64,000 nucleotides of DNA from Gordonibacter sp. An230 (GTDB taxonomy: Bacteria; Actinomycetota; Coriobacteriia; Coriobacteriales; Eggerthellaceae), in the NCBI RefSeq assembly GCF_002159915.1, contig NZ_NFJP01000014.1:1-64000 (forward strand). Direction: 5' to 3'. The notes under the pieces are model-generated. The model was not told the origin of the DNA. It did not search any database and was given only the letters and a program-made list of their open reading frames with translations. Below are positions 35,307 to 52,546 of the stretch, in pieces. The translations under genes and the position numbers were made by a program. Position 1 is the stretch's first letter, and the number at the start of each line of letters is the position of its first letter.

Positions 35307-35849
35307 TTAGCCCTCCTTCTTGGTGTCGTCATCGTCGGTGAGTCCCGCGATCTCGCGCCAGTGCTTGAGCGTCTTGCCCTCGTCGCTGGCCGCGCCCGCG
35401 TTGGGCAGCCCGGTCGCGCCGGAGCCGCCGGCGTTGCCGCCCTTGGCGTGCTTTCCGGTGGTCTCGAAGAGCCAGGGCTCGGCTTCCTTGAGCTTGTCCA
35501 CGTCGTTGCCGTGGTCGCCGAGAAGGGCCCGCGCAGCCTTCACGTTGCGCACGCCAGCGAGCTGCAGCTTGAAGTCGATGCGGTCGGACTCTCCCTGGGC
35601 CTTGAGCTCGGCGATCTCGCCGCGCAGCTGCTCTGCGGTCTCGGCGTTCTTCGCCGCCTCGGCCACCTGGGCCTCCAGGGATGCGATCTTCTCGTCGCGC
35701 TCGGCGATCTGCTTCTCGTAGTCGGGGGCGTTGCCGCCAGTCACTTCCTGCTGGCCCTGTTGTGTCTCCTGCTGCTCTTGGCCCTGCTGTTGCGACGTGT
35801 CCTGCGCACCCTGCGTGGCTTCCTGGCCGCCATTGGTCTCACCGTCCAT
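35307..35849 (-). CDS. Capsid scaffolding protein
   Basis: The protein has 180 aa. A Gln/Glu-rich N-terminus (about 10-40) and a long coiled coil (EKQIAERDEKIASLEAQVAE onwards, about 50-110) lead to a Gly-rich C-terminus. This is the DUF4355-like scaffold profile, and the gene lies directly upstream of the capsid gene. It should drive procapsid assembly. Confidence 0.8.
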   Translation of the reverse strand: MDGETNGGQEATQGAQDTSQQQGQEQQETQQGQQEVTGGNAPDYEKQIAERDEKIASLEAQVAEAAKNAETAEQLRGEIAELKAQGESDRIDFKLQLAGVRNVKAARALLGDHGNDVDKLKEAEPWLFETTGKHAKGGNAGGSGATGLPNAGAASDEGKTLKHWREIAGLTDDDDTKKEG

Positions 35850-35890: not shown

Positions 35891-35930
35891 CAGCCCACCA
35901 ACCTGCGATGAGGTTAGTGGGCTGTCACAA
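35891..35930 (-). terminator. Terminator after the defence operon, with TTGTGAC site 3
   Basis: A 14-bp stem with one mismatch (35891-35904/35911-35924) is followed on the minus strand by CTTCTTGTT. It lies between the DUF262 gene's stop and the scaffold start. TTGTGAC (minus strand, 35924-35930) abuts it, 75 bp before the scaffold. Confidence 0.55.
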
Positions 35931-35977
35931 GGTAGATAGTAATTTGTGCGCCAGGGTCGTTTCGTGCTGGTTTACGT

Positions 35978-37675
35978 CTAGAGGCCCCAGCCTTTCACGA
36001 AGACTGCCATCAGGTCCTTTTGGCGCTGCTCGACGACTTCCGGAGTCCACTTGGCTTCATTAAGCACTTGGGTAGTTAATGCATAGGACGATGTGCCTTT
36101 ACGCCCCGTGAAGTACTTCGCCTTCTTCTTGTCAAAGTCGAAGTTCTGGGCCTCCGAGTTCTTATACCTAGTCAATGGGACGAGGTTCGCGATTTTGTTC
36201 AGCCAGGCGTTACGCTGCTCTACATCGGGCCAAATAACAGACCATTCGCTGCCGTCATGCACAGTCTGTGGCAGCACATGCTCAATCGTAAGAATTCGGG
36301 AGTCATAGGTGGCTGCTCCATCCGCAACAAAGCTGTCGAGACGGAGTATCACGTAATTTCTCTTGCGAGGTGTCTTCAGGTAAATGTCCCCGTTCAGAGC
36401 CGCCAGGAATTGGTTCCGCTCTTCATCAGTGAGGAGCACCGATTCCAGGCGCGGGTTTCCGTTTGTGCCGTGCTCGGGGTGCTCGTCCATTTCGTCGAGT
36501 ATCTGAACATACCGGTTGATGCGCTGGTTTATGTCCTTGGAAGTGACGTGCATGAAAGACGCGAGCCTTTCCAAAGCAATGAAGAACCACTGCACGTAAT
36601 CCGAGTCGCTTCTACGGTTGGCAAGGAACTTGAGGGCGACAGGAACCCAGTCCGAGTTATCAATGCGGTTAAGCCAGCCGAGCCGGTCGTTTACGACCTC
36701 CGAGCCGGTTGTCGCCGAATAGGCGCAGCCCTTCACATCCAGGTATGCTTCCGTGTAGGGCTCCAGCAGGTCGTCAATGAGGATTTCCGGCGTCATACCG
36801 TCTTGCTTCACCACGAACTCCGTGAATTCCTCGTTGAGCGATTTCTTGGCCTTCTTCTTCGCAAACACCATGCGGATGCACGAGAAGACATCATCGAACC
36901 CAGAGCGACCCGCCTGGACCTCGAGCTCCTCCCATTTCTCGGCATAACTAGTCCGCTTAGCCTCTGGTATTTCGGCAATCACATTGGCCTTGATAATGTC
37001 CATCGGAAGCAAGTCGAGCCCTCGGCTGTTCATAACGGCGAAGACACGATATGCGGATGACTGGCTAGGCGTCGACACTGCGACCATGTAGCATCGCGTC
37101 AACAGGAATGTGGCGAAGCTGAAGAGCCGGTCGTCATCGTCCCCGAATTCGTCGCCTATGTCCTTGACGAGCGACCGACAGTTTTCCTGAATGTTTATCT
37201 GAGCCTCATCTTCAAGCTGAGCTGGATCAAGCTCAAGCAGTTCATCGATCTCTAGACCCTGTATATACTTCGAGAAGAACGGCTGGTCGCGGTCCCTTAG
37301 GAATAGACGCGGTTGGTCCGCAATCCCGAGCAGAGCGTTGCCCTGGGCCTTGATGAACGTCATGCAGTCATCACGCCGCTTTCCCTGCAGCTTGTTAGCG
37401 ATAGACGCAAGAAGGATCGTGAGCGTCGTCAGGCGCTGCTGCCCGTCGATCACCTCGGCGCGGCGTTCGTCGTCTTTCTTGATAAGGACGGTGCTGCCCA
37501 GGAAGTAATTCTCCTCGTCCTCCTCTACGAAGAAGTCCCTAAGGTCGGTGAAAAGGACGTTCGTTTCCTCTGTCGTCCAGGCATAGGGGCGCTGATATTG
37601 AGGGATGTGGTATTCGAAGTCGTCGCTGAACACCTTTCCCAATGGATACTCGGCGCCTGTAATCATTTTGCTCAT
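35978..37675 (-). CDS. DUF262/DUF1524 (GmrSD-like) nuclease
   Basis: The protein has 565 aa. The N-terminal DUF262 domain carries YQRPYAW and IDGQQRLTTLTILLA (about 70-90), the ParB-like NTP-binding motif. The C-terminal DUF1524 domain carries TIEHVLPQT, an HNH-type nuclease motif. Fused proteins of this kind include GmrSD-type enzymes that cut modified phage DNA. It is the last gene of the operon, 15 bp after Res. It likely adds a second anti-phage activity to the modification system. Confidence 0.88.
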   Translation of the reverse strand: MSKMITGAEYPLGKVFSDDFEYHIPQYQRPYAWTTEETNVLFTDLRDFFVEEDEENYFLGSTVLIKKDDERRAEVIDGQQRLTTLTILLASIANKLQGKRRDDCMTFIKAQGNALLGIADQPRLFLRDRDQPFFSKYIQGLEIDELLELDPAQLEDEAQINIQENCRSLVKDIGDEFGDDDDRLFSFATFLLTRCYMVAVSTPSQSSAYRVFAVMNSRGLDLLPMDIIKANVIAEIPEAKRTSYAEKWEELEVQAGRSGFDDVFSCIRMVFAKKKAKKSLNEEFTEFVVKQDGMTPEILIDDLLEPYTEAYLDVKGCAYSATTGSEVVNDRLGWLNRIDNSDWVPVALKFLANRRSDSDYVQWFFIALERLASFMHVTSKDINQRINRYVQILDEMDEHPEHGTNGNPRLESVLLTDEERNQFLAALNGDIYLKTPRKRNYVILRLDSFVADGAATYDSRILTIEHVLPQTVHDGSEWSVIWPDVEQRNAWLNKIANLVPLTRYKNSEAQNFDFDKKKAKYFTGRKGTSSYALTTQVLNEAKWTPEVVEQRQKDLMAVFVKGWGL

Positions 37676-37690: not shown

Positions 37691-40600
37691 CTATACGCTC
37701 ACCGTGTGGTACGTAGTCCGCACGTCATATTCCACATCCACCTGCAGTGCCGCGAAGTGCCGCCTAGCGCACCGGATCTTTGTCCTTTCGGCGTCGCTCA
37801 CGCGAATGTTGTTGTTTCCGCCGCCCTTGGTCTCCACAACGAAGTACACGCGCCGCTCGCCATCCTCCTCGACAACGTAGGCCCAGTCGGGGTTGTAGCT
37901 GCCCAGCGGCGTGTCGATCTTGAACTTGTTCGGTAGCTTGGCGAAGACGCGCACCTCCTCGGCTAGGTCGAGCTCCACGGCGAAGGGCTGCTCCACGGTC
38001 GAGGAGTCGTACACGACATAGCTGTACAGGCTCTTGCCGCTGCTCGGCATCCATGCGTTCTGGCCCAGGTAGGCCTTCAGCTCGCCGGGGTCCAGGTCCT
38101 CCATCGTGTACCAGTCCTCGTCTGGCAGCTTTGTGTACTTAATGCCCTCGGCGATGGCTTCGCCCTTGGCCTTCTCTATCTTCTGCGCCACCTGCGCAAG
38201 GAACGTTGCAGGGTCGACCTCGAACTCGTCGTAGCGCCCGCACTCCTCGAGGATGCGCTTGAGCGTTGCGCGGGTGAGCCCTACGGCGTCCTGCAGCTCG
38301 GCGATGGGGTCAGGCAGGTCGTACACGCGCGCTCCGCCCGTCTTCACGAACGAGGTGCCAGTCGCCTGCGCGTCCACGCCGCCGTCGCCAACGATCAGGT
38401 CGGCGCGCGTCGAGAGCACCTCGAGCGGCTTCACCTTCGGCATGCCCTGGATGCCCGCCACGGCGTCGGCGATCAATCTCTCGCTGTCCACGTCCACTTC
38501 GAAGCGCGTGCGCTGGCGAATGCGCTCCCACAGCTCCTGGAAGGCGGGGTCGGCCGTCACGTCCTTGCACAGCTCGACCTCGACCTCCTTGGCCTTGTCC
38601 CTGATCTGGAGCTTCTGGGCCTTGTGCAGGATGATGGCCTCGACCTGCGATTGTGCAGATTCCAGCCCTGCGGGCATCTCCACGCAGCCCTTCTCTGCGG
38701 CCTCCTTGAGCTCGGGTGTGATGTTGCCCTTCTTGTCGACGAGCCCTTTTGCGGCAAAGCTCTGGTACACCTCGGCGCTCTGCTCGAAGCCCAGCTTCAC
38801 CTCCTGGCCGTCAGGCAGCTCTATGGTCACCTTCGTGAACGACTCGGGCGTCAGCACGCCGAAGCGCAGGCCGTCCTTCTCGAACTCGGTCTGCAGCCCG
38901 CTCGCGAAGGCGTCGTAACTCTCGTTGGCGATGACGGTGAGCACGTTGGCGTCCTCGTCGTAGCAACGCTCGCCGCTCTGGTCAACGCACAGGCGAAGCC
39001 CACGCCCGACTTTCTGTCGCTTGGTCATGGTGTCTTTGGTCTCAACCAGCGTGCAGATCTGGAACACGTTCGGGTTGTCCCAGCCCTCCTTGAGCGCCGA
39101 GTGCGACCAGATGAACTGGATGCGCTTCTTGGCCCGTGTCTCCTCGTCGTCACCGTCTGAGGGGAAGGAGATCAGCGTCTCCTTCTCGCGCATGATGGTC
39201 TCGAAGGTCGATATGTCGGCTGCCGTGCTTGCGGTCGCGCTCGTGTTCTTGATGCGGCCCTTGCCGTCCTGGGCGAAGTAGCCAGAGTGCACGGCCGCGG
39301 CGTCGGTGTCGAGCGTAAGCCCGGCGGCGGCGTACTTCTTCTGCCAGCGCGGGCTCGCCACGGCATCGGCGTACTCCTGCTCGAACATCTCGGCGTACTC
39401 GCCGTTTCTCACCGGGTCGTACAGGCGGTACTTCTCAACCTTGTCGATGAAGAAGAGGCTCAAGACCTTGATGCCCCTGGGCGCGAGCTCCAGTTGCCGC
39501 TGCAGATGGTCCTCGATTGTGCGGCGGATCTGGGCGCGCTTCACGGCCTCGTCGGCCACGTCGCCCACAGCCTGGCCCTTCTCCAGCCACTCGCCGTTGG
39601 TGAACTCTATCCATTCGTCGCCGTCGGCGGCCGATATGTTGCTCACGATCCATCCGGCCTCGTAGTCGGTGTTCTCGCCGCTCTTGTCAAAGAGCGAGTC
39701 GTGCGTCCTTACGGTCACGGCCTTGCGCTTCTGACTGCCGTCCTTCTGCCTCACGTCGATGGTCAGTCGCGCCGTTATGGACCCGGGCGTCTTGCCCATG
39801 CGCGTGGAGTCCAGCCTCACGTACGCGCCGTTCAGGTCCGCCTGTGCGAGCACCGAGTCTACGCAGATGCCTTTCACGAGACCCTGCTGAAAGGCGTCAA
39901 CAGGTGTTAGGCGGTAGACCTTGTTGTAGCCCTCCTTGTGTGTGGCGGAGTAGCGCAGCACGAAGAGCGGGTTCAGGCTGCGGATGGCTGCCTTTGCCTT
40001 GGCGGTGTTGTCAACGCTCTGCGGCTCGTCGATGATGACGATGGGGTTGCAGGCGGCCACAACCTCGCGAGGCGATCGGCCACCGATAAGCCGCTCGCTC
40101 GGCCGGTGGAAAAGCGAGCTCGACTCGGCGTTGCCGTCGTTCGAGTAGTCGCGGTTGAACGCCTGAATGTTGATGATCATCACCTGGATGGAGCTGCTGG
40201 TGGCGAAGTTGCCCACTGGCCCCATGTCCTTGCTGTCGTAGACGAACACGTCTATCGGCGCGTTGTCGTAGAGCGTGGCGAAGTGCTTCTTAGTGCTTTG
40301 GAAGCTCTTGAGCACGCCCTCGCGGATGGCTACGCTCGGCACCACGATGAGAAACTTGGCGATGCCGTACCTCTTGTTCAGCTCGAAGATGGTGCGCGTG
40401 TACACGTAGGTCTTGCCGGTGCCCGTCTCCATCTCGATGGTGAAGTCTCGTAGCTTGCCGTCGGTGAGCACGTTCGTCGCAGGGAGGCTGTTCTCTTCTT
40501 GGATGTCGTGCAGGTTCTCAAGCAGCTGGTTGGCCGAGAGACGCAGCCCGTTGGCGTGTCCCACGGAAAGCACTTGGCCCTCCATCAGCGTGCCGGCGGC

Positions 40601-40723
40601 GCCAACCTCGGCTGTGAATTCGCTACGCAGGAACTCCTGCCCGCGGAACAGGTCGGTGATGGCCTCAACGGCCTCCACCTGGTGCTTTTGGTCGGCGGAG
40701 TACTTGAGCTCTAGGGTCGCCAT
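37691..40723 (-). CDS. res: Type III restriction endonuclease (Res) subunit
   Basis: The protein has 1010 aa. The N-terminal half is an SF2 translocase: METGTGKTYVYTRT is the Walker A region (about 117-130), IIDEPQS the motif II variant, LRYSATHK motif III and GRGLRLCVD near motif VI. The C-terminus (about 960-990) carries NPDWAYV and FVVETKGG, the PD-(D/E)xK nuclease. It starts 2 bases after the Mod stop, so the two are co-translated. With Mod it would translocate and cut unmethylated DNA. Confidence 0.92.
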   Translation of the reverse strand: MATLELKYSADQKHQVEAVEAITDLFRGQEFLRSEFTAEVGAAGTLMEGQVLSVGHANGLRLSANQLLENLHDIQEENSLPATNVLTDGKLRDFTIEMETGTGKTYVYTRTIFELNKRYGIAKFLIVVPSVAIREGVLKSFQSTKKHFATLYDNAPIDVFVYDSKDMGPVGNFATSSSIQVMIINIQAFNRDYSNDGNAESSSLFHRPSERLIGGRSPREVVAACNPIVIIDEPQSVDNTAKAKAAIRSLNPLFVLRYSATHKEGYNKVYRLTPVDAFQQGLVKGICVDSVLAQADLNGAYVRLDSTRMGKTPGSITARLTIDVRQKDGSQKRKAVTVRTHDSLFDKSGENTDYEAGWIVSNISAADGDEWIEFTNGEWLEKGQAVGDVADEAVKRAQIRRTIEDHLQRQLELAPRGIKVLSLFFIDKVEKYRLYDPVRNGEYAEMFEQEYADAVASPRWQKKYAAAGLTLDTDAAAVHSGYFAQDGKGRIKNTSATASTAADISTFETIMREKETLISFPSDGDDEETRAKKRIQFIWSHSALKEGWDNPNVFQICTLVETKDTMTKRQKVGRGLRLCVDQSGERCYDEDANVLTVIANESYDAFASGLQTEFEKDGLRFGVLTPESFTKVTIELPDGQEVKLGFEQSAEVYQSFAAKGLVDKKGNITPELKEAAEKGCVEMPAGLESAQSQVEAIILHKAQKLQIRDKAKEVEVELCKDVTADPAFQELWERIRQRTRFEVDVDSERLIADAVAGIQGMPKVKPLEVLSTRADLIVGDGGVDAQATGTSFVKTGGARVYDLPDPIAELQDAVGLTRATLKRILEECGRYDEFEVDPATFLAQVAQKIEKAKGEAIAEGIKYTKLPDEDWYTMEDLDPGELKAYLGQNAWMPSSGKSLYSYVVYDSSTVEQPFAVELDLAEEVRVFAKLPNKFKIDTPLGSYNPDWAYVVEEDGERRVYFVVETKGGGNNNIRVSDAERTKIRCARRHFAALQVDVEYDVRTTYHTVSV

Positions 40724-40725
40724 GG

Positions 40726-42555
40726 CTACACCGTCCTCAGCTCGACCTCGCGGCCAGTCTTCTCCTCCACGCGCTTGAACGCCTGCACGGCGTTGAGCTT
40801 GGTGGTGTCGTCGAGGATACGGTCGAGCATAAGCACGCGCCTTGGCTCCATGTCGGCTATTGCGTCAAGCACTTGCATGTTCAGGCCATCGGCCAAGCAG
40901 CAGACGAGCTCGCCATAGGCGACGGAGTAGCAGGGGTAGCCCGCCGCCTCCACCTTCTCGATGGGGAGGGTGAGCTCGAGGCCCCACTTGAGCATCATCT
41001 CGAAGATGATGTCCTCGTCGCTGCGGTCGGGCTTCACCACGTCGAGCAGCAGCTCTCCGGGTTTCGGGCGCTCGATGCCGCTTTCGTCTAGCTTGAGTAC
41101 GCGGAAGCCGGTGTCTACCTCTCTTTCCGAAGTACCGTCAATAGGCAATTGGAGATTATCTGTCCTGCGTGCTGATATTTGCTCCCCAGCTCGTTTAATC
41201 CGCTCCCTACACATGTCGAATATGCTGTTGAATGCGTTGTTGCCATCACCGACTGGTTCGGGTATTTGGACAGAGATACAGCTAACACAAAATTGCGATT
41301 CGGTATTGAATTTCATAACCGCATCGGCAGTCGCTCCTGATCCAGCAAAGAAATCCATGACTATGCAATCGCGGTCGACAACAAGCTCAAGCAGATACTT
41401 CATAAGAGCCGTTGGCTTTGGGGTGCTGAAAAGGTCTGCAACGGGTAGTTCGGGGAACAGTGCTTTTAGTTCATATTTGGCTGCACGCGTATGTCCTGTT
41501 TTATTCAGGTCAATCAACAATGTCGATGGCGGTAGTCCTTTCATATCCGCCAAATAACGCCTCTTTATTACGCGGGTTTCGTCAGGCGAAAAACGTAGCT
41601 CACCCGTTTTGAACATTTCGTCCATGCGCTCGCGTGACCAACGCCACCCGTTTGCTGGATGCTTAATCACATTGCCGCTGGGTGTAGTGATGTCAAATTG
41701 AAGATTAGGACGTACTCCAGGATTGCTTACATCACCGCCGTCATAATATGGGCCCCTCGGGTCGTTATCGGGATTCTTGTAGTGCTTTCTTTTCTCGGGG
41801 TCATTAAGGAAGTTTGGCCTCCAGCCTGGTGTGCGGCAGTATACAAGCACATCGTTGAAATCTTCAGAAAAAGAGAGAGCATTGTTGTTGCTGCTATCGC
41901 TAGATCGCCATGCAAGATGAGCTGCAAAGCAGTTTTCTCCAAAGATTTCGTCGCAGAGCTTCTTTAGGTTCGCAAACTCAACATGGTCAATGGTTATCAG
42001 TATTACGCCATCTTCTGACAGGAGTTCTCGAGCAAGTCGAAGCCTCGGATATAAGAGCGAGCACCAGTTTGCATGAAAGCGCCCGCTGGTATCAGCGTTT
42101 GATTGTTTCCCTAGATTCAGCTGTTCACGGTAATGTTCAATTGTGTCGCCAAAGCTGTCTGGATATATGAAATCCGTACCAGTATTATATGGGGGATCAA
42201 TAAATATACACTTAATGCGGCCATGGTATGAATGCTGTAGAAGTTTAAGAACTTCTAGATTGTCGCCTTCAATGCAGAGATTCTCGGTCTCATCCCAATC
42301 CACGCTTTCTTCAGGACAGGGACGCAGCGTTGCCATGCTAGGGGTCTGACTCTGGCGGATGGCATCGGTCTTGCCGGGCCAGGTGAAAGCGTACCGCTCG
42401 TTGCCTTCGTCAACTTCGTCGCCCAATACCAGGCGCAGCTTGTCGAAGTCTATGCCACCTTCGGTGGCGACCTCGGGCAGCAGCTGTTTCAGCTGTTCGA
42501 TGCGTTCTGCCACCAGGTTGGCAGATGCAAGGTTCATCTTCTCGAACTCAGCCAT
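40726..42555 (-). CDS. mod: Type III-like DNA adenine methyltransferase (Mod)
   Basis: The protein has 609 aa. Motif IV is FIDPPYNTGTDF (about 137-148) and motif I is DFFAGSGATADAV (about 400-412), the order of beta-class N6-adenine or N4-cytosine enzymes. Flanking regions include target recognition and a C-terminal domain seen in Mod subunits. It overlaps the DUF4391 gene by 8 bases. It would mark self DNA and supply specificity to Res. Confidence 0.92.
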   Translation of the reverse strand: MAEFEKMNLASANLVAERIEQLKQLLPEVATEGGIDFDKLRLVLGDEVDEGNERYAFTWPGKTDAIRQSQTPSMATLRPCPEESVDWDETENLCIEGDNLEVLKLLQHSYHGRIKCIFIDPPYNTGTDFIYPDSFGDTIEHYREQLNLGKQSNADTSGRFHANWCSLLYPRLRLARELLSEDGVILITIDHVEFANLKKLCDEIFGENCFAAHLAWRSSDSSNNNALSFSEDFNDVLVYCRTPGWRPNFLNDPEKRKHYKNPDNDPRGPYYDGGDVSNPGVRPNLQFDITTPSGNVIKHPANGWRWSRERMDEMFKTGELRFSPDETRVIKRRYLADMKGLPPSTLLIDLNKTGHTRAAKYELKALFPELPVADLFSTPKPTALMKYLLELVVDRDCIVMDFFAGSGATADAVMKFNTESQFCVSCISVQIPEPVGDGNNAFNSIFDMCRERIKRAGEQISARRTDNLQLPIDGTSEREVDTGFRVLKLDESGIERPKPGELLLDVVKPDRSDEDIIFEMMLKWGLELTLPIEKVEAAGYPCYSVAYGELVCCLADGLNMQVLDAIADMEPRRVLMLDRILDDTTKLNAVQAFKRVEEKTGREVELRTV

Positions 42556-43318
42556 TGCATAGCTCCTTTATCTCGTTGAGAATCGCGTCCTGCTGGTTCT
42601 CGGCCTTTCTTATGCGTATCCGAAGCTTGGCGGATTCATTCAGGGTCACGTCGGGCGCTCGCTTCTGTTCGTAGAGTTGACGCACCTCACTTCGCACCAC
42701 ATCGTAACGGTTCACTAGGACAAGAATTCGTTCATGGTCTCCGGCGCGTGCTTGGGGATAGAAGCCCAGTGCGTCGATAGCGCGGGAGAGCATCACGTCG
42801 CTTGCCATAGCGCTCAGGTATTCGTAGAGGTCGCCCTGCGGCAGCATCGGATAGGCGATTGCGTCCAGGAAGGGTTGCCACTCGGGCGCCCGCGGGTCGA
42901 AGAGCCCGGTCGACTCAATGGCCTCCATCACGGTGGCGCCGCGCTCAGCATAGCTCTTGCGGGTGAGCGAGACGGACACGCACGTCTTGTCGCCCACGTC
43001 CTGCATGATCACGGTCGGGTTCGGGAAGCACTTGTGCACGAGGTGTGCCACCTCGGCCACAGCCTGTGACGTCCCCGCCATCTCGCAGCGCAGGTATATG
43101 ACGCTTTGGATGTCTCGCTCGTCGTCAACGCGCGGCAGCATCCTCGTCGTCGCCTTGGTTGCCGTTGCGAAGTGCTCGAGCCTCCTAATCTTGTCGAGCG
43201 TCTTCTGCTCGTGCTTGGTGAGCGCGGCTTGAGCTACGAGCATCGTCTTGGGCACGCGCTTGTTTCCGGCCAGCGCCGTCTCGGGCAGCTGGAATATGTC
43301 GTTCCACCGCGTGCTCAT
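42548..43318 (-). CDS. DUF4391-type protein of the defence operon
   Basis: The protein has 256 aa from ATG 43318, which overlaps the helicase stop as ATGA. It begins MSTRWNDIFQLPETALAGNK and has IQSVIYLRCEMAGTSQAV and a C-terminal coiled-coil segment. This matches the DUF4391 family as I know it, a protein regularly found between an SNF2-type helicase and a Mod gene. Its function is not established. The tight overlaps on both sides imply it works with the complex. Confidence 0.75.
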   Translation of the reverse strand: MSTRWNDIFQLPETALAGNKRVPKTMLVAQAALTKHEQKTLDKIRRLEHFATATKATTRMLPRVDDERDIQSVIYLRCEMAGTSQAVAEVAHLVHKCFPNPTVIMQDVGDKTCVSVSLTRKSYAERGATVMEAIESTGLFDPRAPEWQPFLDAIAYPMLPQGDLYEYLSAMASDVMLSRAIDALGFYPQARAGDHERILVLVNRYDVVRSEVRQLYEQKRAPDVTLNESAKLRIRIRKAENQQDAILNEIKELCNG

Positions 43319-46300
43319 CGCAGCACCAAGAAGGACAGGAGCGAGTAGTCGTTGAAGCCCAGGGTCACGCCGCTGCCCACCTCGCCCAGGCTGAACAGCG
43401 ACTCCATGCCCTTGGTCTCCTGCACGCCGGTTATGGCGGCCACAACGTCGTCGAGCAGGTCGGTGTAGGCGTCCATGCGAAGCCCGTCCCTCGTCTCTGC
43501 ATTGAATGTCTTGCATAGGTCGAGCAGGGGCTCGTGTTGTCCGCTACACGCCGCCCGCATTAGGTCCAGTGCAGGCTTGGGCTGCGTGTGCTTGGTCATC
43601 CTCGCCCCGTCGTCGGTCACGTAGACAACGTAGTACGGGAAGGTCGGGTTGGTGTCCTTTGGGTCCTTCCGCTCGTCGTTCTGCTTGAGGCAGAAGATCA
43701 CGCCGGGCCTCACCTCGCCCTTTAGCTCGTCGGGTATGGGCGCAATGGCGTGAAGGCCAACAGGCGACGTCTCCAGCAAGCCGGGGTTATCCTTGGCGTA
43801 GCGCTGCAACTCCACGCGGAAGTCGTCGAAGGCGAAGTCGGTGATGGATATGCCGCCCGATATGTCCTCCAGGTCCAGCACCTCGGTGCGCAGCTGCTCG
43901 AGCTGCTGGCGGCGGTACTTGAGGTCGTTCATCTCGCCGGCCGCCTTGGACTCCAGCACGTTTTCCTCGCCGGTGGCGCTCGCGTCCATGAGCACCATGC
44001 GGCCCTTCACGCGGCCCTCCAGCTGGATGTACTCGTCGAGCGCGATGTCCGGCCAGAAGTTCACGAGCTGGATCTCCTTGTTCTCGCTGCCCAGGCGGTC
44101 GATGCGCCCGAAGCGCTGGATGATGCGCACCGGGTTCCAGTGGATGTCGTAGTTCACCAGGCAGTCGCAGTCCTGCAGGTTCTGGCCCTCGGATATGCAG
44201 TCAGTGGCAAAGACGATGTCGATCTCGCCGGCGTTGCGGTCGCGTTCCGAGAGCTCCTTCGACTTCGGGGAGAAGTGCGCTAGTATCGCCTCGAACGTCG
44301 TGCGCCTCAGCTTGAGCGAGTAGGTGCGGTTGGCCCCGCCGTTCACCTCGGCGCACTCCAGCCCGAGCTCGCGCTTGAGCGGCCCGGCCAGCTGGTCGAA
44401 GAGGTAGTCAGTCGTGTCCGCGAACGCGCTGAACACGAGGATCTTGCGGTTGCCCGGGTTGTATGGGTTCGTCACCTTCTCGGCTATGTACTCGCGCAGC
44501 CTTATGAGTTTTGCGTCGCGCTCGGGCGTCACCGCGTCGGCGTAGCTGAGAAGCAGGCGCAGCTTCTCGATGTCGTAGTCCAGGTCCTGTCGCAGGCGCA
44601 GCGCGTCCACGTCGCGCAGGTCAACGTGCACCCTGCCGCCGGCCACGAACTCCTCGGCGTCATCGTCGTCGTCGAACTCGGTGTCGGTGCCGCGCATGTC
44701 GTAGTTCACGCTCGCGCCCACGTTGTCCAGGCGGCCCCGCAGGTCCACGCAGCCGTCCAGGATGCGCCGCAGCGTGATGCGGAAGCTGTTCACGGACGAC
44801 TCCATGCGCTTGAGCACGTTCACGCGCATCAGGTTGGCCACGGCGGTCGTGCGGTTCACCTGGCTCTGGAAGTCCTTGCCCCACGTGTCGCCGTAGCGGT
44901 CCTCGTACTTCCTCTGCTGGTCGTAGCGCACGTAGCTGAGCACCTGGTACTGGGCGAACGTCAGCTGGGCGATCATGTCGTTGAGCTCAGCGATCGGCGG
45001 CAGCTCGCCCCTGGCGTCAATGGGCGTCTGGAACGATATGGGCGGTCGCCTCGTCGGGAACGTGCCGGACGCGGCGCCGTAGTACTTGGTGATGTGCTTG
45101 CGGGAGCGTGCGATGGTCAGCACGTCGAGCAGCTTGAAGTAGTCGGCGTTCACCGCGTTCACGAAGCTCTCGGTCGTGCGCTCGCTGTCGTCTAGCTTGC
45201 TCCACTCGTTGAATCTCTGCTGGGCAACGCGCGTCACCTGCGTGATGGATGGGATGCCGTCCGTCTCGGCGAGGTACTCGTCGTCGCCCTCGGTTATGAG
45301 CTCGATCTGGTTGCGCAGGTCGAGCAGCTTGTTGTTCACCGGCGTGGCCGAGAGCATCAGCACCTTGGTGCGCACGCCTGCCCGGATCACGTCGTCGATG
45401 AGGCGCGTGTAGCGGTCGGTCTTCTCGGCGTCGGTGCTCTTGTTGCGGAAGTTGTGGCTCTCGTCGATGACCAGGAGGTCGTAGTTGCCCCAGCGAAGGT
45501 ACTCCAGGTCGATGTCGCCGCTCATGCCGGAGTAGCGCGACAGGTCGGTGTGGTTCAGCACATCGTATGCGAAGCGGTCGTCCGCGAGCGGGTTGCGCTC
45601 GTCGTTGCCGCGCGTCCAGAGCGTCCAGTTGTCGCGCAGACGCTTCGGGCAGAGCACGAGCACGCGGCCGTTGCGCTCCTCGTAGTACTTGATGATCGCC
45701 AGCGCCTCGTAGGTCTTGCCCAGGCCCACCGAGTCGGCGATGATGCAGCCCTTATACTTCTCCAGCTTGCGGATGGCGCCCACCACGGCGTCGCGCTGGA
45801 AGTCGTAGAGCTTACCCCACACGACCGACTCCTCGAAGCGGAGTCCCGGCCGTATCGGGTCCTCGGTCTCGTCCTCCATGAAGTCGCGGAACAGGTGGTA
45901 GAGCGTCAGGAAGTACACGAACTCGGGCGAGTTCTCGCGGTAGAGCGTGGAAACCTGCTCGATGACTTCCTCGGTCACGTCCTCCACGAGCGCTGGGTTG
46001 TCCCAGACCGAGTCGAACATGGCCTTGAGGCCCATCGCCTCGGCCGACGTCTGGAAGTGGCTAATGCCGGTCACGACGCCGGGCTTGCGCTCGTAGCCGA
46101 GGCCTTCCAAGGTGAAGGCGTTGGCCGCGCTACCCATGAAGGCGTGCGACTCCGCATTCGGGTTATCCACGTGGTAGCTGCCGGTCGTGGCGATCATGCC
46201 GCGCTGCTTGGCCGTCTTGAAGGTGGCGCGCTGTCGCGCCCACTCGGCGCACTGCCTTGCGAGCGCTCGCTGGTTCAAGTTGTTGCGCAGCGTCAGCTCC

Positions 46301-46566
46301 AGGCCCGTGCCGCCGACGCCCTTCTCGCGGGACCGCCGGCGCACGACGAACTCGCGCGGGTCCTTCTCGGACTCCATCTGCTTGGCGAAGGTCGGCTCGT
46401 CGAAGATGAACCGCAGCTCGTCGACCTTCGAGAGTTCGTCCTTGAGCTCGCCGAACGCGAAGACCGTGAAGTACGACGCGATTATGGAAAGCTTCGCGCC
46501 GTCGTCGATGGAATCCCTGAGGGCGTCGCCGAGGCGCTGCCGCCCCGTGTTGTCGAGGTATTCCAT
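43315..46566 (-). CDS. PLD-like/SNF2-type helicase of the defence operon
   Basis: The protein has 1083 aa. The N-terminal about 120 residues (IIASYFTVFAFGELKDEL, RFIFDEPTF) resemble the phospholipase-D-like domain that precedes such helicases. The SNF2 ATPase shows SVGLGKTYEALAI (Walker A), LLVIDESHNFRN (motif II), MLSATPVNN (motif III), SEGQNLQDCD and RIIQRFGRIDRLGS (motifs V and VI). It is probably a DNA translocase that cooperates with Mod, Res and DUF4391 in restriction. It is separated by 4 bases from the upstream small gene. Confidence 0.9.
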   Translation of the reverse strand: MEYLDNTGRQRLGDALRDSIDDGAKLSIIASYFTVFAFGELKDELSKVDELRFIFDEPTFAKQMESEKDPREFVVRRRSREKGVGGTGLELTLRNNLNQRALARQCAEWARQRATFKTAKQRGMIATTGSYHVDNPNAESHAFMGSAANAFTLEGLGYERKPGVVTGISHFQTSAEAMGLKAMFDSVWDNPALVEDVTEEVIEQVSTLYRENSPEFVYFLTLYHLFRDFMEDETEDPIRPGLRFEESVVWGKLYDFQRDAVVGAIRKLEKYKGCIIADSVGLGKTYEALAIIKYYEERNGRVLVLCPKRLRDNWTLWTRGNDERNPLADDRFAYDVLNHTDLSRYSGMSGDIDLEYLRWGNYDLLVIDESHNFRNKSTDAEKTDRYTRLIDDVIRAGVRTKVLMLSATPVNNKLLDLRNQIELITEGDDEYLAETDGIPSITQVTRVAQQRFNEWSKLDDSERTTESFVNAVNADYFKLLDVLTIARSRKHITKYYGAASGTFPTRRPPISFQTPIDARGELPPIAELNDMIAQLTFAQYQVLSYVRYDQQRKYEDRYGDTWGKDFQSQVNRTTAVANLMRVNVLKRMESSVNSFRITLRRILDGCVDLRGRLDNVGASVNYDMRGTDTEFDDDDDAEEFVAGGRVHVDLRDVDALRLRQDLDYDIEKLRLLLSYADAVTPERDAKLIRLREYIAEKVTNPYNPGNRKILVFSAFADTTDYLFDQLAGPLKRELGLECAEVNGGANRTYSLKLRRTTFEAILAHFSPKSKELSERDRNAGEIDIVFATDCISEGQNLQDCDCLVNYDIHWNPVRIIQRFGRIDRLGSENKEIQLVNFWPDIALDEYIQLEGRVKGRMVLMDASATGEENVLESKAAGEMNDLKYRRQQLEQLRTEVLDLEDISGGISITDFAFDDFRVELQRYAKDNPGLLETSPVGLHAIAPIPDELKGEVRPGVIFCLKQNDERKDPKDTNPTFPYYVVYVTDDGARMTKHTQPKPALDLMRAACSGQHEPLLDLCKTFNAETRDGLRMDAYTDLLDDVVAAITGVQETKGMESLFSLGEVGSGVTLGFNDYSLLSFLVLR

Positions 46567-46570
46567 GGCG

Positions 46571-46774
46571 TCAGTCCTTCTTCGTAAGCTTCTCGATGAG
46601 GCATTGCTTCACGAGGGAGGTAAACGTGAGGCCGTTGAGGTTGGCGTACTCCTTTGCAGATTCCCGCATGGTGCGCGGAAGCCGAAGGGTGACCGTGACC
46701 AGCTCGGAATCGACAAGATACGCCTGCAGCTCTGACGTGGAGGCGCCGGAATCGAGCAGCTCCGAATACTTCAT
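46571..46774 (-). CDS. Small ribbon-helix-helix-like regulator
   Basis: The protein has 67 aa from ATG 46774, 8 bases after AGGG. Longer starts at 46780 and 46810 are possible. Residues about 25-65 (VTVTLRLPRTMRESAKEYAN and FTSLVKQCLIEKL) form the beta-strand-helix-helix of CopG/Arc-type repressors. As first gene of the defence operon it probably controls operon expression. Confidence 0.65.
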   Translation of the reverse strand: MKYSELLDSGASTSELQAYLVDSELVTVTLRLPRTMRESAKEYANLNGLTFTSLVKQCLIEKLTKKD

Positions 46775-46810
46775 AAGCATCCCTACCAAGTAACGCCGAT
46801 GTAAATACAC

Positions 46811-47082
46811 AACGCATCACATTCTAACAGACCGCAACAGTACTGAGATTAGCTGGCAGCTAAGAAGGAAGAGGAACGCAGCAGAATGACTCGCAGGTGA
46901 ACGAAACCGTTAGCGAGAAGACCGTAAGCGGAAAGTAAGAAGTGCATACGGATAGAGAGAAGACCGTGGCGAATGAGAAGAACGCGCACGCCGAGACCGC
47001 GACCGTCTGCCAAACGATGAACCTGCGACCGAACCGTTGCTGATCGCCACCGAGACCGTGAGCGTCACGACGCAGAATTTAT
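46811..47082. other. Upstream region of defence operon, repetitive, no gene
   Basis: No convincing gene. Purine-rich on the plus strand, with three GAGAAGA (46915, 46957, 46975) and repeated ACCGT steps between 46907 and 47055. It should contain the promoter for the minus-strand operon, though I cannot pick boxes with confidence. Confidence 0.4.
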
Positions 47083-47589
47083 CTGCCGCCGGGCCGTGCG
47101 CACAAGCCACGCAAGCGCGGGCTCATCGAGGGTTGGGCCGCGCCATGGGCAGGGGTGCCGTGGGGCGCGGGTCGGGCCTGCCATGCGGGCAGCGGGCGGC
47201 ATGCGAGTCAACCGGGGACGGCCGGGAGCGTGGCCGTCGTCCGTGTCTTCGCGCTCCGCCTCACAGCCCCGCTTCGCGGGTCTGTTCGTCGGGCGGCGCT
47301 CAGCCACGGCCGCCGTCCACGCTCCCGGCCTGCGCTGGCACACAGGGGGCCGTGGGCGCGTGCGTCTTCGCCACGGCGCTTCACAGCCCGGCTTGCGCCG
47401 GTCTGTTCAGCGCTGCGGGCTCAGCCGCCCACGCCCACGGCCCCCTGTGCGCCAGCGCCTGCAAGGTTATCGGGCCGCCCGCTGCCCGCATGGCAGTCCC
47501 TCCCTCGCGCGCCCCACGGCACCCCTGCCCATGGCGCTACCGCTTTGGGGTCGTGCGCTTGCGTGGCTTGTGCGCACCGTCGGCGGCAG
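47083..47589. ncRNA. Giant inverted-repeat element enclosing two homologous hairpins
   Basis: The outer arms pair in four exact blocks: 47083-47091/47581-47589, 47096-47118/47555-47577 (23 bp), 47140-47169/47508-47537 (30 bp) and 47178-47200/47474-47496 (23 bp). Inside are hairpin A (47220-47233/47317-47330) and hairpin B (47332-47358/47432-47458). A and B share GTCTTCGC, TCACAGCCC, GGTCTGTTC and GCTCAGCC in the same order, while the small stem between them differs but stays paired (CCCGC/GCGGG versus CCGGC/GCCGG). It is noncoding on both strands. Whether it acts as RNA or as DNA is not known. Confidence 0.65.
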
Positions 47590-47712
47590 AGACGGCGGCA
47601 GCGGCGGTCACCGTGCCCGGGTCGGCCGTGACGGATCCCGGGCCCAGACAGCAGGAGACGGCCCGCAGGCCGTCCCCGGAGAGCTCGTATGCCGTTGTGC
47701 GTGCCCGCGTGG

Positions 47713-48366: not shown

Positions 48367-49848
48367 TCACTGCTTTTCACCATCCCCGATACTGCCAGCA
48401 CCGATCTCGGCCGCCCTGGCGCGTGCCACGCTTTCCTCTTCTCCATACCAGCGCATGCGATACTCCCATGCGCCCATGGTGACGCCCACTTCCTTCATGT
48501 CCTGTTCCTTCTCGGCGGCCGTGTCCTGGATGATGGAGTCATCAAATTGGATCCTCGTCTCGCCCTCATTGGGAATGGACTCACCAAAGCCACGCGACAC
48601 GTGCATGGCCGCCCTGGCTATCGAGACGATCGCGTCTTCCAGGCTGTTCTCATGCCTGCGGATGTTGCGCATCAGGGCCGAGTTATCGCTACTGACCTCC
48701 GTGGCCGTCTTCACGTACCCGCGCGAGTCGTCCATGTCGAAGTAGTTGATGCCGAAGCCCGTGAGGTCGCCGAGCATCTGTAGGGCAACGCGGAAGGCCT
48801 CGATCTGCCCGCTCGTGCGGAGCGCCGGCGCGAATTCTTGGATGGTGTCTTCCGTCGACATGACCTTGCGGAAGACGGTGCAGTCCTGCTTTCCGAAGGG
48901 GATGGTGACGTTCTTGTTGCCATCGGCCTCACGGTCGAAGAGAACATCGCTAAGAAAGACACGCATCTTGCTCAGGTCAATCTCGTTGATGAGCGCGTCG
49001 AAGGTGAGGTCCACGGCTTGCACCGCATCCACCGCGTCCGCGAAGACGCTCTGTCCGTAGGGACTCATATCCACCCTGGTATTCGTGACTGCTGGCTTGA
49101 CGATGCCGAAGGTGGGGAAAGGGCAGCCCGTGTCGTATATGGGGAGAATACCCACCGGCGCGAGCTCGTTACCCTCATGGTCGAAGCACACGGTGACGAT
49201 CCGGTACGTCTCCTCGCTTTCATTGGCGAGAAGACCTTCCGCGTATTCAGGTGAAGGTGTGGAAGGTGAAGAAAAGTCAGGCGAGAAGACCATGCCGCCC
49301 TTGAGGTGCATCTGCAGCTGGTCCACGGCCTTGCCACGATAGAAGGCACGCGTGACGAAGGCGCATTCGCTGATGCCGTCCTCATCCCAGCTCAGGGGAA
49401 TGACCATGCGAGCGTCGTAATGGCGAATACGGACCTTCCGCTTGCCCAGGTCAATCCAAAGCGCCCAGGCACCAGTGCCGAGCCCGAAGGCACGTACCAC
49501 GGTGGCCTGCGCCGCGTTCATGAAGTTCGTGGAAGAGAAGAACGAGTTGATCCAGTCGGTGGCCTTCTGGTTCTCACAGACCACCTTCACTTCCTCGTTG
49601 AGGAGAAGAGAGCCCCATTCCTTGCAAACGCGCATGGCAGGGTGAATAGACCGACGGTGAACAGCGTACACGCGCCCCATGCCGTCCTTGTCCCTATAGT
49701 CGTAAAACTCGCCCCTGGCTGACATCCAGTCATCCCAGCTACGTATCCAGGGCTCCATGTCATCCAGGGGAAGGACAAACCCAAGCTTGCGCAAGTAATC
49801 CTTCACGTGCTCCGGCACCCAGTATTCATCGAGACCATTAGCGCCCAT
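48367..49848 (-). CDS. Phage portal protein
   Basis: The protein has 493 aa. It has the length and pattern of SPP1-type portals. N-terminal WIRSWDDWMSARGEFYDYRD is followed by a region with FFSSTNFMNAAQATVVRAFGLG. A central part contains YGQSVFADAVDAVQAVDLTFDA. A long C-terminal helix lies near FGINYFDMDDSRGYVKTATE. It would form the DNA entry vertex. It is separated from the scaffold gene by about 12.5 kb of accessory DNA, where a minor head protein is normally found. Confidence 0.85.
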   Translation of the reverse strand: MGANGLDEYWVPEHVKDYLRKLGFVLPLDDMEPWIRSWDDWMSARGEFYDYRDKDGMGRVYAVHRRSIHPAMRVCKEWGSLLLNEEVKVVCENQKATDWINSFFSSTNFMNAAQATVVRAFGLGTGAWALWIDLGKRKVRIRHYDARMVIPLSWDEDGISECAFVTRAFYRGKAVDQLQMHLKGGMVFSPDFSSPSTPSPEYAEGLLANESEETYRIVTVCFDHEGNELAPVGILPIYDTGCPFPTFGIVKPAVTNTRVDMSPYGQSVFADAVDAVQAVDLTFDALINEIDLSKMRVFLSDVLFDREADGNKNVTIPFGKQDCTVFRKVMSTEDTIQEFAPALRTSGQIEAFRVALQMLGDLTGFGINYFDMDDSRGYVKTATEVSSDNSALMRNIRRHENSLEDAIVSIARAAMHVSRGFGESIPNEGETRIQFDDSIIQDTAAEKEQDMKEVGVTMGAWEYRMRWYGEEESVARARAAEIGAGSIGDGEKQ

Positions 49849-49899
49849 GCGTCACCTCCGATAGTCCGGCCGATAAGGTCAGGTGAAGCATCCGCCCGC

Positions 49900-49906
49900 G
49901 TCACAA
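49900..49906 (-). promoter_or_regulatory. TTGTGAC motif, site 4 (portal)
   Basis: Minus-strand TTTGTGACGCGGGCGG lies 52 bp upstream of the portal start and shares ten bases with the sites before TerS and the fibre gene. Confidence 0.4.
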
Positions 49907-49969
49907 ACACCCACGTGCCTTAAAATGCCGAGAAGAGCTTTCGGTTTGAGAAGAGAAGCCGGGGAGAAC

Positions 49970-50692: not shown

Positions 50693-50703
50693 CACGCAAT
50701 CGC

Positions 50704-50838
50704 TTAGGCGCCAATAAGGGCGAGAAGAGCCAACGTCACCAAGGCGCACGCCAGCAGCCGCATGAGCTCGATTATGGCGAGAAGAGCACAGATGCCAACG
50801 GCAATAAGAATGGCGAGAAGAACGATGAGAAAAGCCAT
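50704..50838 (-). CDS. 44-aa hydrophobic membrane peptide
   Basis: It starts 3 bases after the TerL stop (ATG 50838). The sequence is almost wholly hydrophobic (MAFLIVLLAILIAVGICALL, then IELMRLLACALVTLALLALI), predicting two short membrane helices. Three of its Leu-Leu-Ala steps use CTTCTCGCC, giving GAGAAG on the other strand. It could be a small toxin, a holin-like peptide or an exclusion factor. Expression is inferred from placement only. Confidence 0.45.
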   Translation of the reverse strand: MAFLIVLLAILIAVGICALLAIIELMRLLACALVTLALLALIGA

Positions 50839-50841
50839 TGC

Positions 50842-52122
50842 CTAACCTCGCAATACGTCGTCCATCATGGCATAGCGAACAGCGTCTATGGAATGGTCAT
50901 TGCCGTCCGGGATCTCGTCGATCCAGTTGCCCTCCTTGTCCTTCTCGAACTCCTTCAAGGTGAATTCGGAGAAGGTCAAGGGGCATCGCTCCGGGTCAAT
51001 CACGATCTCGCGCAGCCCCGCCAGCCACTCGTAAGACAAGCGCCTCATCCTGGCCTTCCTGGCCGCATGCACGCGGATGCCGAGCTCGCGTCTCCACACG
51101 TTCATCTGCACCTTGCTATCAGGCGTGTCGTCGCAGTAGACGATCTGGTCGTGGAAGTATGCCTCCGCGCCCTGTTCGTCCGGGAAGGTGAGAGAATCCA
51201 CTACGATCCTGCCCGTCTCTGCCGGCATCATCTTGTTCGCGGAATGCTCCTCGAAGACGAGAAGGCGCCGCGCATCAGGCTCCCAGGCACAGCGGACAAA
51301 GCGCCAGGGATCAGGGAACCAGCCCCAGTCCACGCCATTGCGAATACGTTGGAAGGTGCGGATGCGAGAGTCGGAAAGCTTCGCCTCGTGCACGTTATCG
51401 AAGATGGCGCCGCCAGTGCCGGTGATCTCGCCCAGGTACTCCCAACGCCATGCCTGCTCGTTCGTGTCGCGCAGGTATTCGGCTTCCTCGACAAAGGGTG
51501 CGCCCAGCCAGTCGGGGTGCGTCTCTATCACGTCGAGATAAGAGCTACCACGCACAAGGGTGTCGTCACGCCTCACACGCTCCAGGCGCTCCACGTTCAC
51601 CCAGCTCCACATAGTCTTCGGCGGGTTGTAGGAATAGAAGATCCAGAAGCGGTCGCCGCCACGGCGCAAAGAGTTGAGGATGGAGCGAACAGCCTCCACG
51701 CCCTCGAACTGGTCCAACTCCTCGAACCACACCACCGAGCAATAGCCCTTGGTGAACTTCACGCCCTTGAGCTTGAGAGGATCGTCCGCCCCGCGGAACA
51801 CGATGCGCTGCCCGGTAGGGGTGTACGTGATTTCCATGGGAGAAACGCGGCAGCGGAAGACGCCCTCCAGGCCGAGCACCTCGATCGCCCACTGGATCTG
51901 CTGGTAGACGGAATCGCGCAAGGTGTTGGAGAAACGCCTCACCACCACCGCGTTCGCCTTCGGGTTGGCAATGATGAGAAGGACGATTGCTATCGAGATG
52001 AACGAGCTCTTGGTCGACCCGCGCCCGCCCGGCAGCCAGTAGTGCGTGTGGCCATGGGCCATCACGTCGCCGAGCACCGGGTGGAAGCGCGGGATGACGA
52101 AGTCGGAGACGTTAGTCGCCAT
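50842..52122 (-). CDS. terL: Terminase large subunit
   Basis: The protein has 426 aa from ATG 52122, with GGTGA 5 bases upstream. The start lies within the end of terS. The N-terminal ATPase has GGRGSTKS (about 32-39) and SVVWFEELDQFEG as Walker B (about 130-142). The C-terminal nuclease domain includes GVDWGWFPDPWRFV and HSIDAVRYAMMDDVL. It is of the PBSX/XtmB type and would drive DNA packaging. Confidence 0.92.
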   Translation of the reverse strand: MATNVSDFVIPRFHPVLGDVMAHGHTHYWLPGGRGSTKSSFISIAIVLLIIANPKANAVVVRRFSNTLRDSVYQQIQWAIEVLGLEGVFRCRVSPMEITYTPTGQRIVFRGADDPLKLKGVKFTKGYCSVVWFEELDQFEGVEAVRSILNSLRRGGDRFWIFYSYNPPKTMWSWVNVERLERVRRDDTLVRGSSYLDVIETHPDWLGAPFVEEAEYLRDTNEQAWRWEYLGEITGTGGAIFDNVHEAKLSDSRIRTFQRIRNGVDWGWFPDPWRFVRCAWEPDARRLLVFEEHSANKMMPAETGRIVVDSLTFPDEQGAEAYFHDQIVYCDDTPDSKVQMNVWRRELGIRVHAARKARMRRLSYEWLAGLREIVIDPERCPLTFSEFTLKEFEKDKEGNWIDEIPDGNDHSIDAVRYAMMDDVLRG

Positions 52123-52546
52123 TCGCGTCACCGTCCCCGGCCTCGCCGTCGGAGTCGTCGGCCATGGGCTCGATCACCAAGCCAAGAGTGAGCTGCACCG
52201 GCGCGTTGTCGGCCTCCTCGGCCTTGCGCTCCATCTTGCCGTACTCCATGGGGTACTTGCGCTCGAGCAGCCAGGCGGCCGCCGTCCAGTACTGGGCGCG
52301 AGACTCCGCCGCCGACTTGATGGTCGTGAGCAGGCATCTCTTGTACTGCGCCTCGGCCTTTTTTAGTTCTTCGTATAACGCGCGTTTCACTCCGGTCTTT
52401 GCGTTCTCGCCCTCCTTGAGCCAGCGGTAGAACGTCGCCTGGTGCACGCCGATCGCGGCGATGATGTCCGCGTCGCACAGTCCGTCGCGCTTGAGCTCGA
52501 CGATCTGCTCCACGAGCGCGTATGTAAGCTTCAACTTCGCGGGCAT
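52112..52546 (-). CDS. terS: Terminase small subunit
   Basis: The protein has 144 aa from ATG 52546, preceded by GAGGAGG. The N-terminal helix-turn-helix (CDADIIAAIGVHQATFYRWL, about 25-44) is the DNA-recognition part. The following helices form the oligomerisation core and the C-terminus is acidic. It lies directly upstream of terL, as usual. Confidence 0.85.
   Translation of the reverse strand: MPAKLKLTYALVEQIVELKRDGLCDADIIAAIGVHQATFYRWLKEGENAKTGVKRALYEELKKAEAQYKRCLLTTIKSAAESRAQYWTAAAWLLERKYPMEYGKMERKAEEADNAPVQLTLGLVIEPMADDSDGEAGDGDANGD

What the first reader, a model, noticed from the sequence alone, without database searches (positions are those of the whole stretch)
47083..47589. Ornate ~507-bp inverted-repeat element with two homologous internal hairpins
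Four exact arm blocks (9, 23, 30 and 23 bp) pair across the whole element. Inside, two hairpins of about 110-125 nt share four short motifs in the same order (GTCTTCGC, TCACAGCCC, GGTCTGTTC, GCTCAGCC), while the stem between the second and third motif differs in sequence but stays paired. Compensatory change with conserved loops is what a selected structure looks like. It is noncoding, sits in a prophage between a small HTH pair and a defence operon, and matches no feature I know. Candidates are a large structured phage RNA (in the spirit of GOLLD or ROOL, without claiming identity), a palindromic mobile element, or a cruciform DNA site.
Basis: partly seen in the sequence, partly recalled or inferred. 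Interest (0 to 1): 0.85.

Follow-up and report, generated by a model that had tools for sequence, protein, structure and literature searches.

The report
Folded border of phage defence cassettes
An elaborate folding sequence with no match in the RNA family catalogue sits, in viruses of a group of gut bacteria, right where interchangeable antiviral gene sets are plugged in, so it may be the socket or the control element for swapping them.

Summary
The element is real (window 47082-47590) and is one copy of a conserved family. Relatives lie after the portal gene in Coriobacteriales phages: 74 of 93 loci with at least 2 kb there carry its module (the two collections overlap), every model hit on the portal strand. 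Of 24 copies with readable ends, 16 are 379-389 nt and 3, the window's among them, 505-508 nt. Stems covary; G.A and A.G mismatches are kept. Rfam has no match.

The surprise is the position. Homology between phages with different cargo stops a median 9 nt past the foot of the fold. There begins an exchanged cassette of about 5-12 kb. In 30 of 31 loci examined it held restriction-modification, BREX, Dodola, Mza, IetS or similar genes, two of them on a helicase domain alone. The element also stands beside such cassettes outside these phages (L236-L238).

Whether the folded strand is RNA or single-stranded DNA is open. Tip loops and the lack of a G.U excess lean to DNA; apparent co-transcription with portal leans to RNA. 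My leading reading is a folded-DNA border of a cassette site (0.38), narrowly ahead of an ornate phage RNA (0.36). No transcript or recombination test was possible.

The parts
47082..47590 (-). whole folded element; the folded strand is taken to be the portal-coding (minus) strand
47096..47118 (.). outer arm (23 bp), pairs with 47555-47577
47140..47169 (.). second arm (30 bp exact), pairs with 47508-47537
47174..47200 (.). third arm, pairs with 47474-47500 (96%)
47355..47435 (-). module B of the covariance models (internal hairpin 47332-47458)
   Evidence: 69.5 and 71.6 bits
47236..47314 (-). module A (internal hairpin 47220-47330)
   Evidence: 56.5 and 59 bits
47075..47083 (-). A-rich foot (GATAAATT) after the closing stem; homology to L137, L141 and L124 ends at 47075-47078, to L136, L140, L059, L112 and L126 only at 46849-46975
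46571..46810 (-). small ribbon-helix-helix-like gene, first gene of the cassette
   Evidence: (DUF6290 5e-6, CopG 8e-4, both below Pfam's cut-offs)
43315..46566 (-). helicase gene of the cassette
42548..43516 (-). DUF4391 gene of the cassette
40726..42555 (-). N6/N4 DNA methylase, taken with the next gene as a type III system
37691..40723 (-). type III restriction enzyme
   Evidence: PADLOC REase_III 3.5e-291
35978..37675 (-). GmrSD-type restriction gene, last gene of the cassette
35891..35931 (-). right border: CTTGTGAC late-promoter-like box overlapping a terminator-like hairpin, just before the scaffold gene
35307..35849 (-). scaffold gene (constant right flank)
34422..35303 (-). major head protein
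48367..49848 (-). portal gene (constant left flank)
49887..49907 (-). late-promoter-like TTTGTGAC-N7-GATGCT upstream of portal
50842..52131 (-). terminase large subunit

Best explanation
It is the conserved left border of an exchangeable anti-phage defence cassette in Coriobacteriales phages (shown). Most likely it works as folded single-stranded DNA: when the portal-coding strand is single-stranded (replication, annealing recombination, transfer) it folds into a long hairpin tipped by very stable mini-hairpins. The foot of that hairpin is then where incoming defence cassettes are joined, much as attC hairpins serve integrons (inferred). The right end of the site is a late-promoter-like box with a terminator-like hairpin before the scaffold gene (seen as sequence). 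The recombining enzyme is unknown; which nucleic acid folds is inferred, not shown.
For: Homology ends a median 9 nt past the foot, 66 of 73 pairs (19 loci) within 30 nt; right-hand breaks against the window lie at 35933, 35881 and 35867, at or within 25 nt of the box and hairpin. The element borders the same kind of cassette outside these phages: L236 (chromosome; genes 98-100% like those of phage L132, one only 72% like L074) and L237/L238, whose mutual homology starts at the 5' foot. Tip loops: of 42 distinct tips, 11 are C-GNA-G triloops, 19 GNNA closed by C-G (2 more closed by T-A), 6 CNNG closed by G-C; GNYA 14 against GNRA 7. d(GNA) triloops with a C-G closing pair are a stable DNA family (PMC5815330, passages); the other two as stable DNA loops are recalled. 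With DNA energies the portal strand of L041 folds far better than its complement, z -11.7 against -4.3; for the window -21.8 against -18.7. On pairs predicted from both strands, G.T and A.C mismatches are about equally rare (13:7, 6:8, 12:10, 8:5), so no G.U tolerance typical of RNA is seen.
Against: No recombinase has been linked to it. Only the left border is a hairpin of this kind, whereas integron cassettes need two sites. Homology would also end at the foot if the element is simply the last selected sequence before freely diverging cargo. In phages it is always in the late-transcription sense behind portal, which suits an RNA. The strand bias is larger with DNA than with RNA energies only for L041; for the window it is smaller (z gap 3.1 against 4.5). 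Loop counts come from related sequences. Tandem G.A pairs and seven GNRA loops suit RNA as well. On the portal side homology runs on for a median 172 nt, with a quarter of 115 pairs ending by the 5' foot or inside, so the 5' foot is not a general junction. 19 of 93 loci lack a module after portal by model R2.
Confidence: 0.38

Rival explanations
1. A large ornate structured RNA (in the manner of GOLLD or ROOL) transcribed late from the portal promoter and acting as an RNA or RNP.
For: Every model hit in the portal-oriented loci lies on the portal strand. A late-promoter-like TTTGTGAC-N7-[TGA]ANNNT (68 of 92 boxes have the second part at exactly that spacing) precedes portal in part of the loci (20 of 76 by the strict form), and none lies between portal and element in 85 regions even with one mismatch, so the element would be the 3' part of the portal transcript. 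Sense RNA folds beat antisense. Tandem G.A and A.G mismatches are conserved (34 of 34; A.G 66 of 66 in the model-fitted set). 47 of 124 pairs show two-sided change in 15 full-length rows.
Against: No transcript data. GNYA loops outnumber GNRA; no G.U excess on strand-neutral pairs. It does not explain why the element keeps company with defence cassettes outside these phages, including L238 where the upstream gene is divergent.
Confidence: 0.36
2. A cis-acting RNA in the late transcript that insulates the cassette from late transcription, or an antiterminator that lets transcription cross it.
For: Position between the last late gene and the cassette. The right side carries a terminator-like hairpin within 40 nt of the scaffold start in 15 of 22 rows plus a promoter-like box. 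Long defence operons follow in sense in many loci (not counted).
Against: No intrinsic terminator: none of 24 ends has four T in a row in the 20 nt after the stem. Cassette genes lie in either orientation (L065, L069, L028), so a leader role is not general. Scaffold has its own promoter-like box.
Confidence: 0.13
3. A packaging (cos/pac-like) or replication site folded as DNA, shared by phage and satellites, with defence genes collecting beside it as in P2/P4.
For: P4 and P2 defence hotspots lie by cos (PMC9122126, passages). The element also occurs in islands without portal that carry a TerS relative (L244) or an integrase (L237, read by eye).
Against: Packaging sites act as duplex DNA; a covarying single-strand fold is not expected. 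A chromosomal island (L236) carries it too.
Confidence: 0.1
4. Artefact: misassembly, or arms kept alike by template switching with no function.
For: Long near-perfect arms in the window clade.
Against: Dozens of separate assemblies; the mismatches that template switching would erase are among the best-conserved positions.
Confidence: 0.02

Closest known systems
Integron attC sites
   Same: Imperfect hairpin at a gene-cassette junction, used as folded single-stranded DNA; mini-hairpins near the tip can help folding (PMC11641012, passages)
   Different: About 60-150 nt with L and R boxes and extrahelical bases; two sites and IntI needed; here about 380-510 nt in most copies, one border, IntI neither found nor searched for by profile
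GOLLD and ROOL RNAs
   Same: Very large covarying structures encoded in phages and prophages, function unknown (PMC12286853, passages)
   Different: No Rfam match at gathering in the window and 9 relatives; no tRNA gene in the window; not shown to be an RNA
P2/P4-type phage defence hotspots
   Same: Interchangeable defence genes at one fixed place in a phage and in satellites (PMC9122126, passages)
   Different: That paper's main text has no occurrence of noncoding, non-coding, hairpin or terminator; here the site lies between portal and scaffold and is bordered by a large folded element
put/EAR-type antitermination RNAs (recalled)
   Same: Structured nucleic acid ahead of long operons
   Different: Far larger here; cargo in either orientation

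Membership tests
Rfam families (GOLLD, ROOL, OLE and all others) | covariance-model score above gathering | tested here: not met
   (window and 9 relatives): 0 matches; best E 0.53 to an unrelated sRNA
GOLLD/ROOL-like ornate RNA | expressed as a stable RNA | not testable with these tools
   no expression data
GOLLD/ROOL-like ornate RNA | large structure supported by covariation, in phages | tested here: met
Integron attC | hairpin foot coincides with the cassette junction | tested here: met
   3' foot, median 9 nt, 66 of 73 pairs within 30 nt
Integron attC | a matching site at the other end of the cassette | tested here: not met
   where scaffold is seen, the right border is a promoter/terminator-like box without a model hit
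Integron attC | IntI recombinase | not tested
   no profile search for IntI was made
Phage defence hotspot | diverse defence genes exchanged at one fixed position | tested here: met
   control
Kink-turn RNA | 3-nt bulge flanked by tandem G.A | tested here: not met
   the loop GCTGA/GAAGA is symmetric: G.A, C-G, U-A, G.A, A.G
Intrinsic terminator | U-run after the stem | tested here: not met
   no run of four T in the 20 nt after any of 24 ends; most feet are A-rich, L079 and L098 (doubtful ends) are not

The most novel reading that the evidence does not exclude
Coriobacteriales phages, satellites and chromosomal islands share a folded single-stranded-DNA 'socket' of some 380-510 nt, built of duplicable and nestable mini-hairpin modules, at whose foot whole anti-phage defence systems are swapped: a cassette-exchange system for immunity distinct from integrons.
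Probability: 0.28. Interest if true: 0.95.

Novelty: new variant of a known kind. Interest (0 to 1): 0.8.

Why it matters
Phages are known to trade defence systems at fixed hotspots, but how whole systems are swapped so cleanly is open. Here is a conserved structure whose foot is the junction, in one phage family, with many natural comparisons and copies outside the phages. It can be tested directly as RNA or as DNA. Its two covariance models also serve as a search key that leads to defence cassettes.

Tried and rejected
Kink-turn: my first reading of GGCTGA/GCGAAGAC (note), withdrawn (note) because the loop is symmetric with two Watson-Crick pairs inside; a kink-turn stencil gave one unconvincing hit.

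Exchange at CTTCTCG-like repeats: breaks against three relatives fell on them, but over 246 pairs a repeat lay within 15 nt of the break in both members 2 times (control 1.0%) and in at least one 16 times (6.5%, control 8.6%); rejected.

G.U asymmetry as proof of RNA: it depends on which strand is folded; on strand-neutral pairs there is none.

Processive antitermination to reach the head genes: weakened when scaffold was found to have its own promoter-like box.

Ribbon-helix-helix gene as a constant partner: only 10 of 67 distinct loci.

Searches of phage and plasmid records with the window and L041 elements: no match. Paper searches on defence, Coriobacteriia and structured-RNA combinations (listings only) listed nothing that I could recognise as this element; the library lacks most subscription papers.

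Rows dropped or capped: L079, L095, L098 (ends unsure); loci with under 2 kb after portal; identical rows from A3; one search kept 80 of 102 relatives; the output was cut. In one search, 22 of 46 loci gave no ends under the simple rule. Loci without a module after portal: L068, L069, L080, L081, L090, L091, L112, L115, L118, L120, L122, L125, L127, L129, L133, L142, L147, L167, L171. Of these L069, L142 and L147 are the contigs of L029, L039 and L044, which carry arm remnants; L112 and L122 match part of the element; L081 has modules before portal; the others were not examined further.

One search was added to check loop-closing pairs and portal-scaffold distances.

Full report
The minus strand is the coding strand of the surrounding late genes: TerS, TerL, portal, element, defence operon, scaffold, major head protein.

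The element is a family. A search of 149 relatives' genomes found an 89% copy in another family of the order, clear fragments in two more genomes, and only short weak matches in others. Portal searches gave 24 viral loci, 80 genome loci kept of 102, all titled as Coriobacteriia, their families or genera, or simply actinobacteria, and 47 viral loci, some seen before. A model of the 80-nt module (34 sequences) and a second one (77 matches) find it after portal in 41 of 56 genome loci and 33 of 37 viral loci with at least 2 kb there (the collections share some phages). All hits in the portal-oriented loci were on the portal strand: 63 of 63, 52 of 52, 65 of 65, 46 of 46, the window's own hits being on its minus strand. 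In whole genomes it is in 52 of 395 of the order and 3 of 396 drawn from the phylum, all three of the same order and one the window's own.

Structure. On the MAFFT alignment, which was not fitted to the structure, 16 of 23 pairs change on both sides, 131 cells against 43 in shuffles and at most 32 when partners are slid. Fifteen full-length copies give 124 pairs, 47 with two-sided change. Among the best-kept positions are mismatches: G.A, tandem G.A/A.G and a single A.G (33, 34, 34 and 34 of 34; A.G 66 of 66 in the model-fitted set). A tip motif (AGAC stem loop stem GGCT) occurs 114 times in sense and 2 in antisense in 2.14 Mb of partly redundant loci, and 0 times in 0.58 Mb shuffled. Of 46 loci tried, 24 gave ends by a simple rule: 16 are 379-389 nt, the window and two relatives 505-508 nt with two modules, five others 426-741 nt. 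Rfam has no match.

Position. In 21 loci where portal and scaffold are both seen they stand 4.7-9.9 kb apart (longer gaps could not be seen), in the window 12.5 kb. The space holds genes that differ from phage to phage and may lie on either strand. Profile searches covered 31 loci: window, L032, L033, L037, L038, L042, L044, L045, L060, L062, L065, L069-L072, L074, L077, L078, L080, L082, L085, L086, L090, L095, L059, L152, L054, L164, L169, L170, L173. Thirty had at least one restriction-modification or other defence-type gene: type I, II and III systems, BREX, Dodola, McrBC, Mza, IetS, DrmD-like and others. L095's tested gene was a transporter. L090 and L164 rest on a ResIII helicase domain alone, L078 on a methylase and a helicase domain, L170 on partial methylase matches. 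PADLOC matched in 23 of the 26 loci given to it (limit 1e-3, 1e-15; often one gene a locus). The loci are not all independent, and four (L044, L069, L080, L090) have no model hit. As a control, 1 of 9 other large genes of the window's prophage matched PADLOC (a primase), and the type III enzyme did as it should. For 73 pairs (19 loci) with different cargo the shared sequence ends a median 9 nt past the 3' foot, 66 within 30 nt; on the portal side it runs on for a median 172 nt (115 pairs, quartiles 3 and 785). Against the window three relatives break at 47075-47078, five others 109-235 nt further on.

Transcription. A box TTTGTGAC followed at exactly seven bases by [TGA]ANNNT (68 of 92 sites; 92 boxes in sense against 11 antisense) lies upstream of TerS (41 boxes, 47 loci), of scaffold (12, 17) and of portal (20, 76 by the strict form). 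None lies between portal and element in 85 regions, one mismatch allowed. So the element would be the end of the portal transcript. A terminator-like hairpin stands within 40 nt before the scaffold start in 15 of 22 rows, in the window overlapping the box.

Outside these phages. Of 30 genome-search loci with short flanks, 22 showed portal sequence. Of 25 loci fetched with more flank, seven had the module, at least 3.4 kb upstream and no portal: L236-L238, L244, L245, L247, L249; four more were too short to tell. In L236 the element and a type I system 98-100% like that of phage L132 (one gene 72% like L074) sit in a chromosome beside genes that read as ribosomal protein S1 and other housekeeping genes (by eye). 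L237 and L238, from two families, share element and type I-like genes at 87%, and their homology begins at the 5' foot (gene names from weak similarity and by eye). L247 has the Alw26I cassette of L137 with the element cut by what reads as an IS21-type insertion. L249, L244 and L245 are less clear; in L245 the likely defence genes lie before the module, not after it. The L238 copy folds with z -11 and differs from a phage copy by 9 two-sided compensated pairs, 7 one-sided and 11 broken of 139.

RNA or DNA. For RNA: late sense orientation, size, mismatches typical of structured RNA. For DNA: loops interchange among GAA, GTCA, GCCA, GACA and GCAA in close relatives; 36 of 42 distinct tips are C-GNA-G, C-GNNA-G or G-CNNG-C, and GNYA outnumbers GNRA 14 to 7; d(GNA) triloops with C-G closure are a stable DNA family (PMC5815330, passages), the other two are recalled as such; G.T and A.C mismatches are about equally rare on strand-neutral pairs. 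The strand bias of folding is larger with DNA energies for L041 but not for the window. None of this is decisive. I lean to DNA (0.38) over RNA (0.36).

Interpretation. Shown: a conserved, covarying, oriented folded element marks the left border of an exchangeable defence site and accompanies such cassettes elsewhere. Inferred: that it acts in the exchange. Not shown: transcript, extrusion, enzyme. The sharp border by itself can also mean only that selection stops there.

Noticed in passing
window 49907, 35931, 29994, 27047 (minus strand): Candidate phage late promoter TTTGTGAC-N7-[TGA]ANNNT shared by this phage family, upstream of TerS, portal, scaffold and tail genes.
   Followed up: partly
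window 49941-50705: Second swap site between TerL and portal: an antisense 269-aa ORF without Pfam match, not shared by L136, L137, L124 and L142.
   Followed up: partly
window 49929-50814 (minus) and L108 12370-12433: CTTCTCG-type repeats crowd the TerL-portal gap; in L108 eight copies stand 9 nt apart just after the element. Function unknown; not generally at cassette breaks.
   Followed up: partly
L081, L084, L092, L094-L096, L104, L109, L128, L160-L163: In some phages of Collinsella, Olsenella and relatives module hits also lie between TerL and portal, in a hairpin array.
   Followed up: no
L168 9399-10833, L170, L169: Modules appear nested inside modules, as if the fold grows by insertion at its tip.
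   Followed up: no
window 46571-46810; L062, L063, L067, L059, L100, L085, L136, L169, L238: A related small ribbon-helix-helix gene opens cassettes of quite different type, perhaps a shared defence-operon repressor.
   Followed up: partly
L247 4765-7653; L030 184-654: What reads by eye as an IS21-type element, or its end, abuts the folded element at two different points in two genomes.
   Followed up: no
L244: Island with a TerS relative but no portal, genes that read as type I RM, and the module: a possible phage satellite.
   Followed up: no
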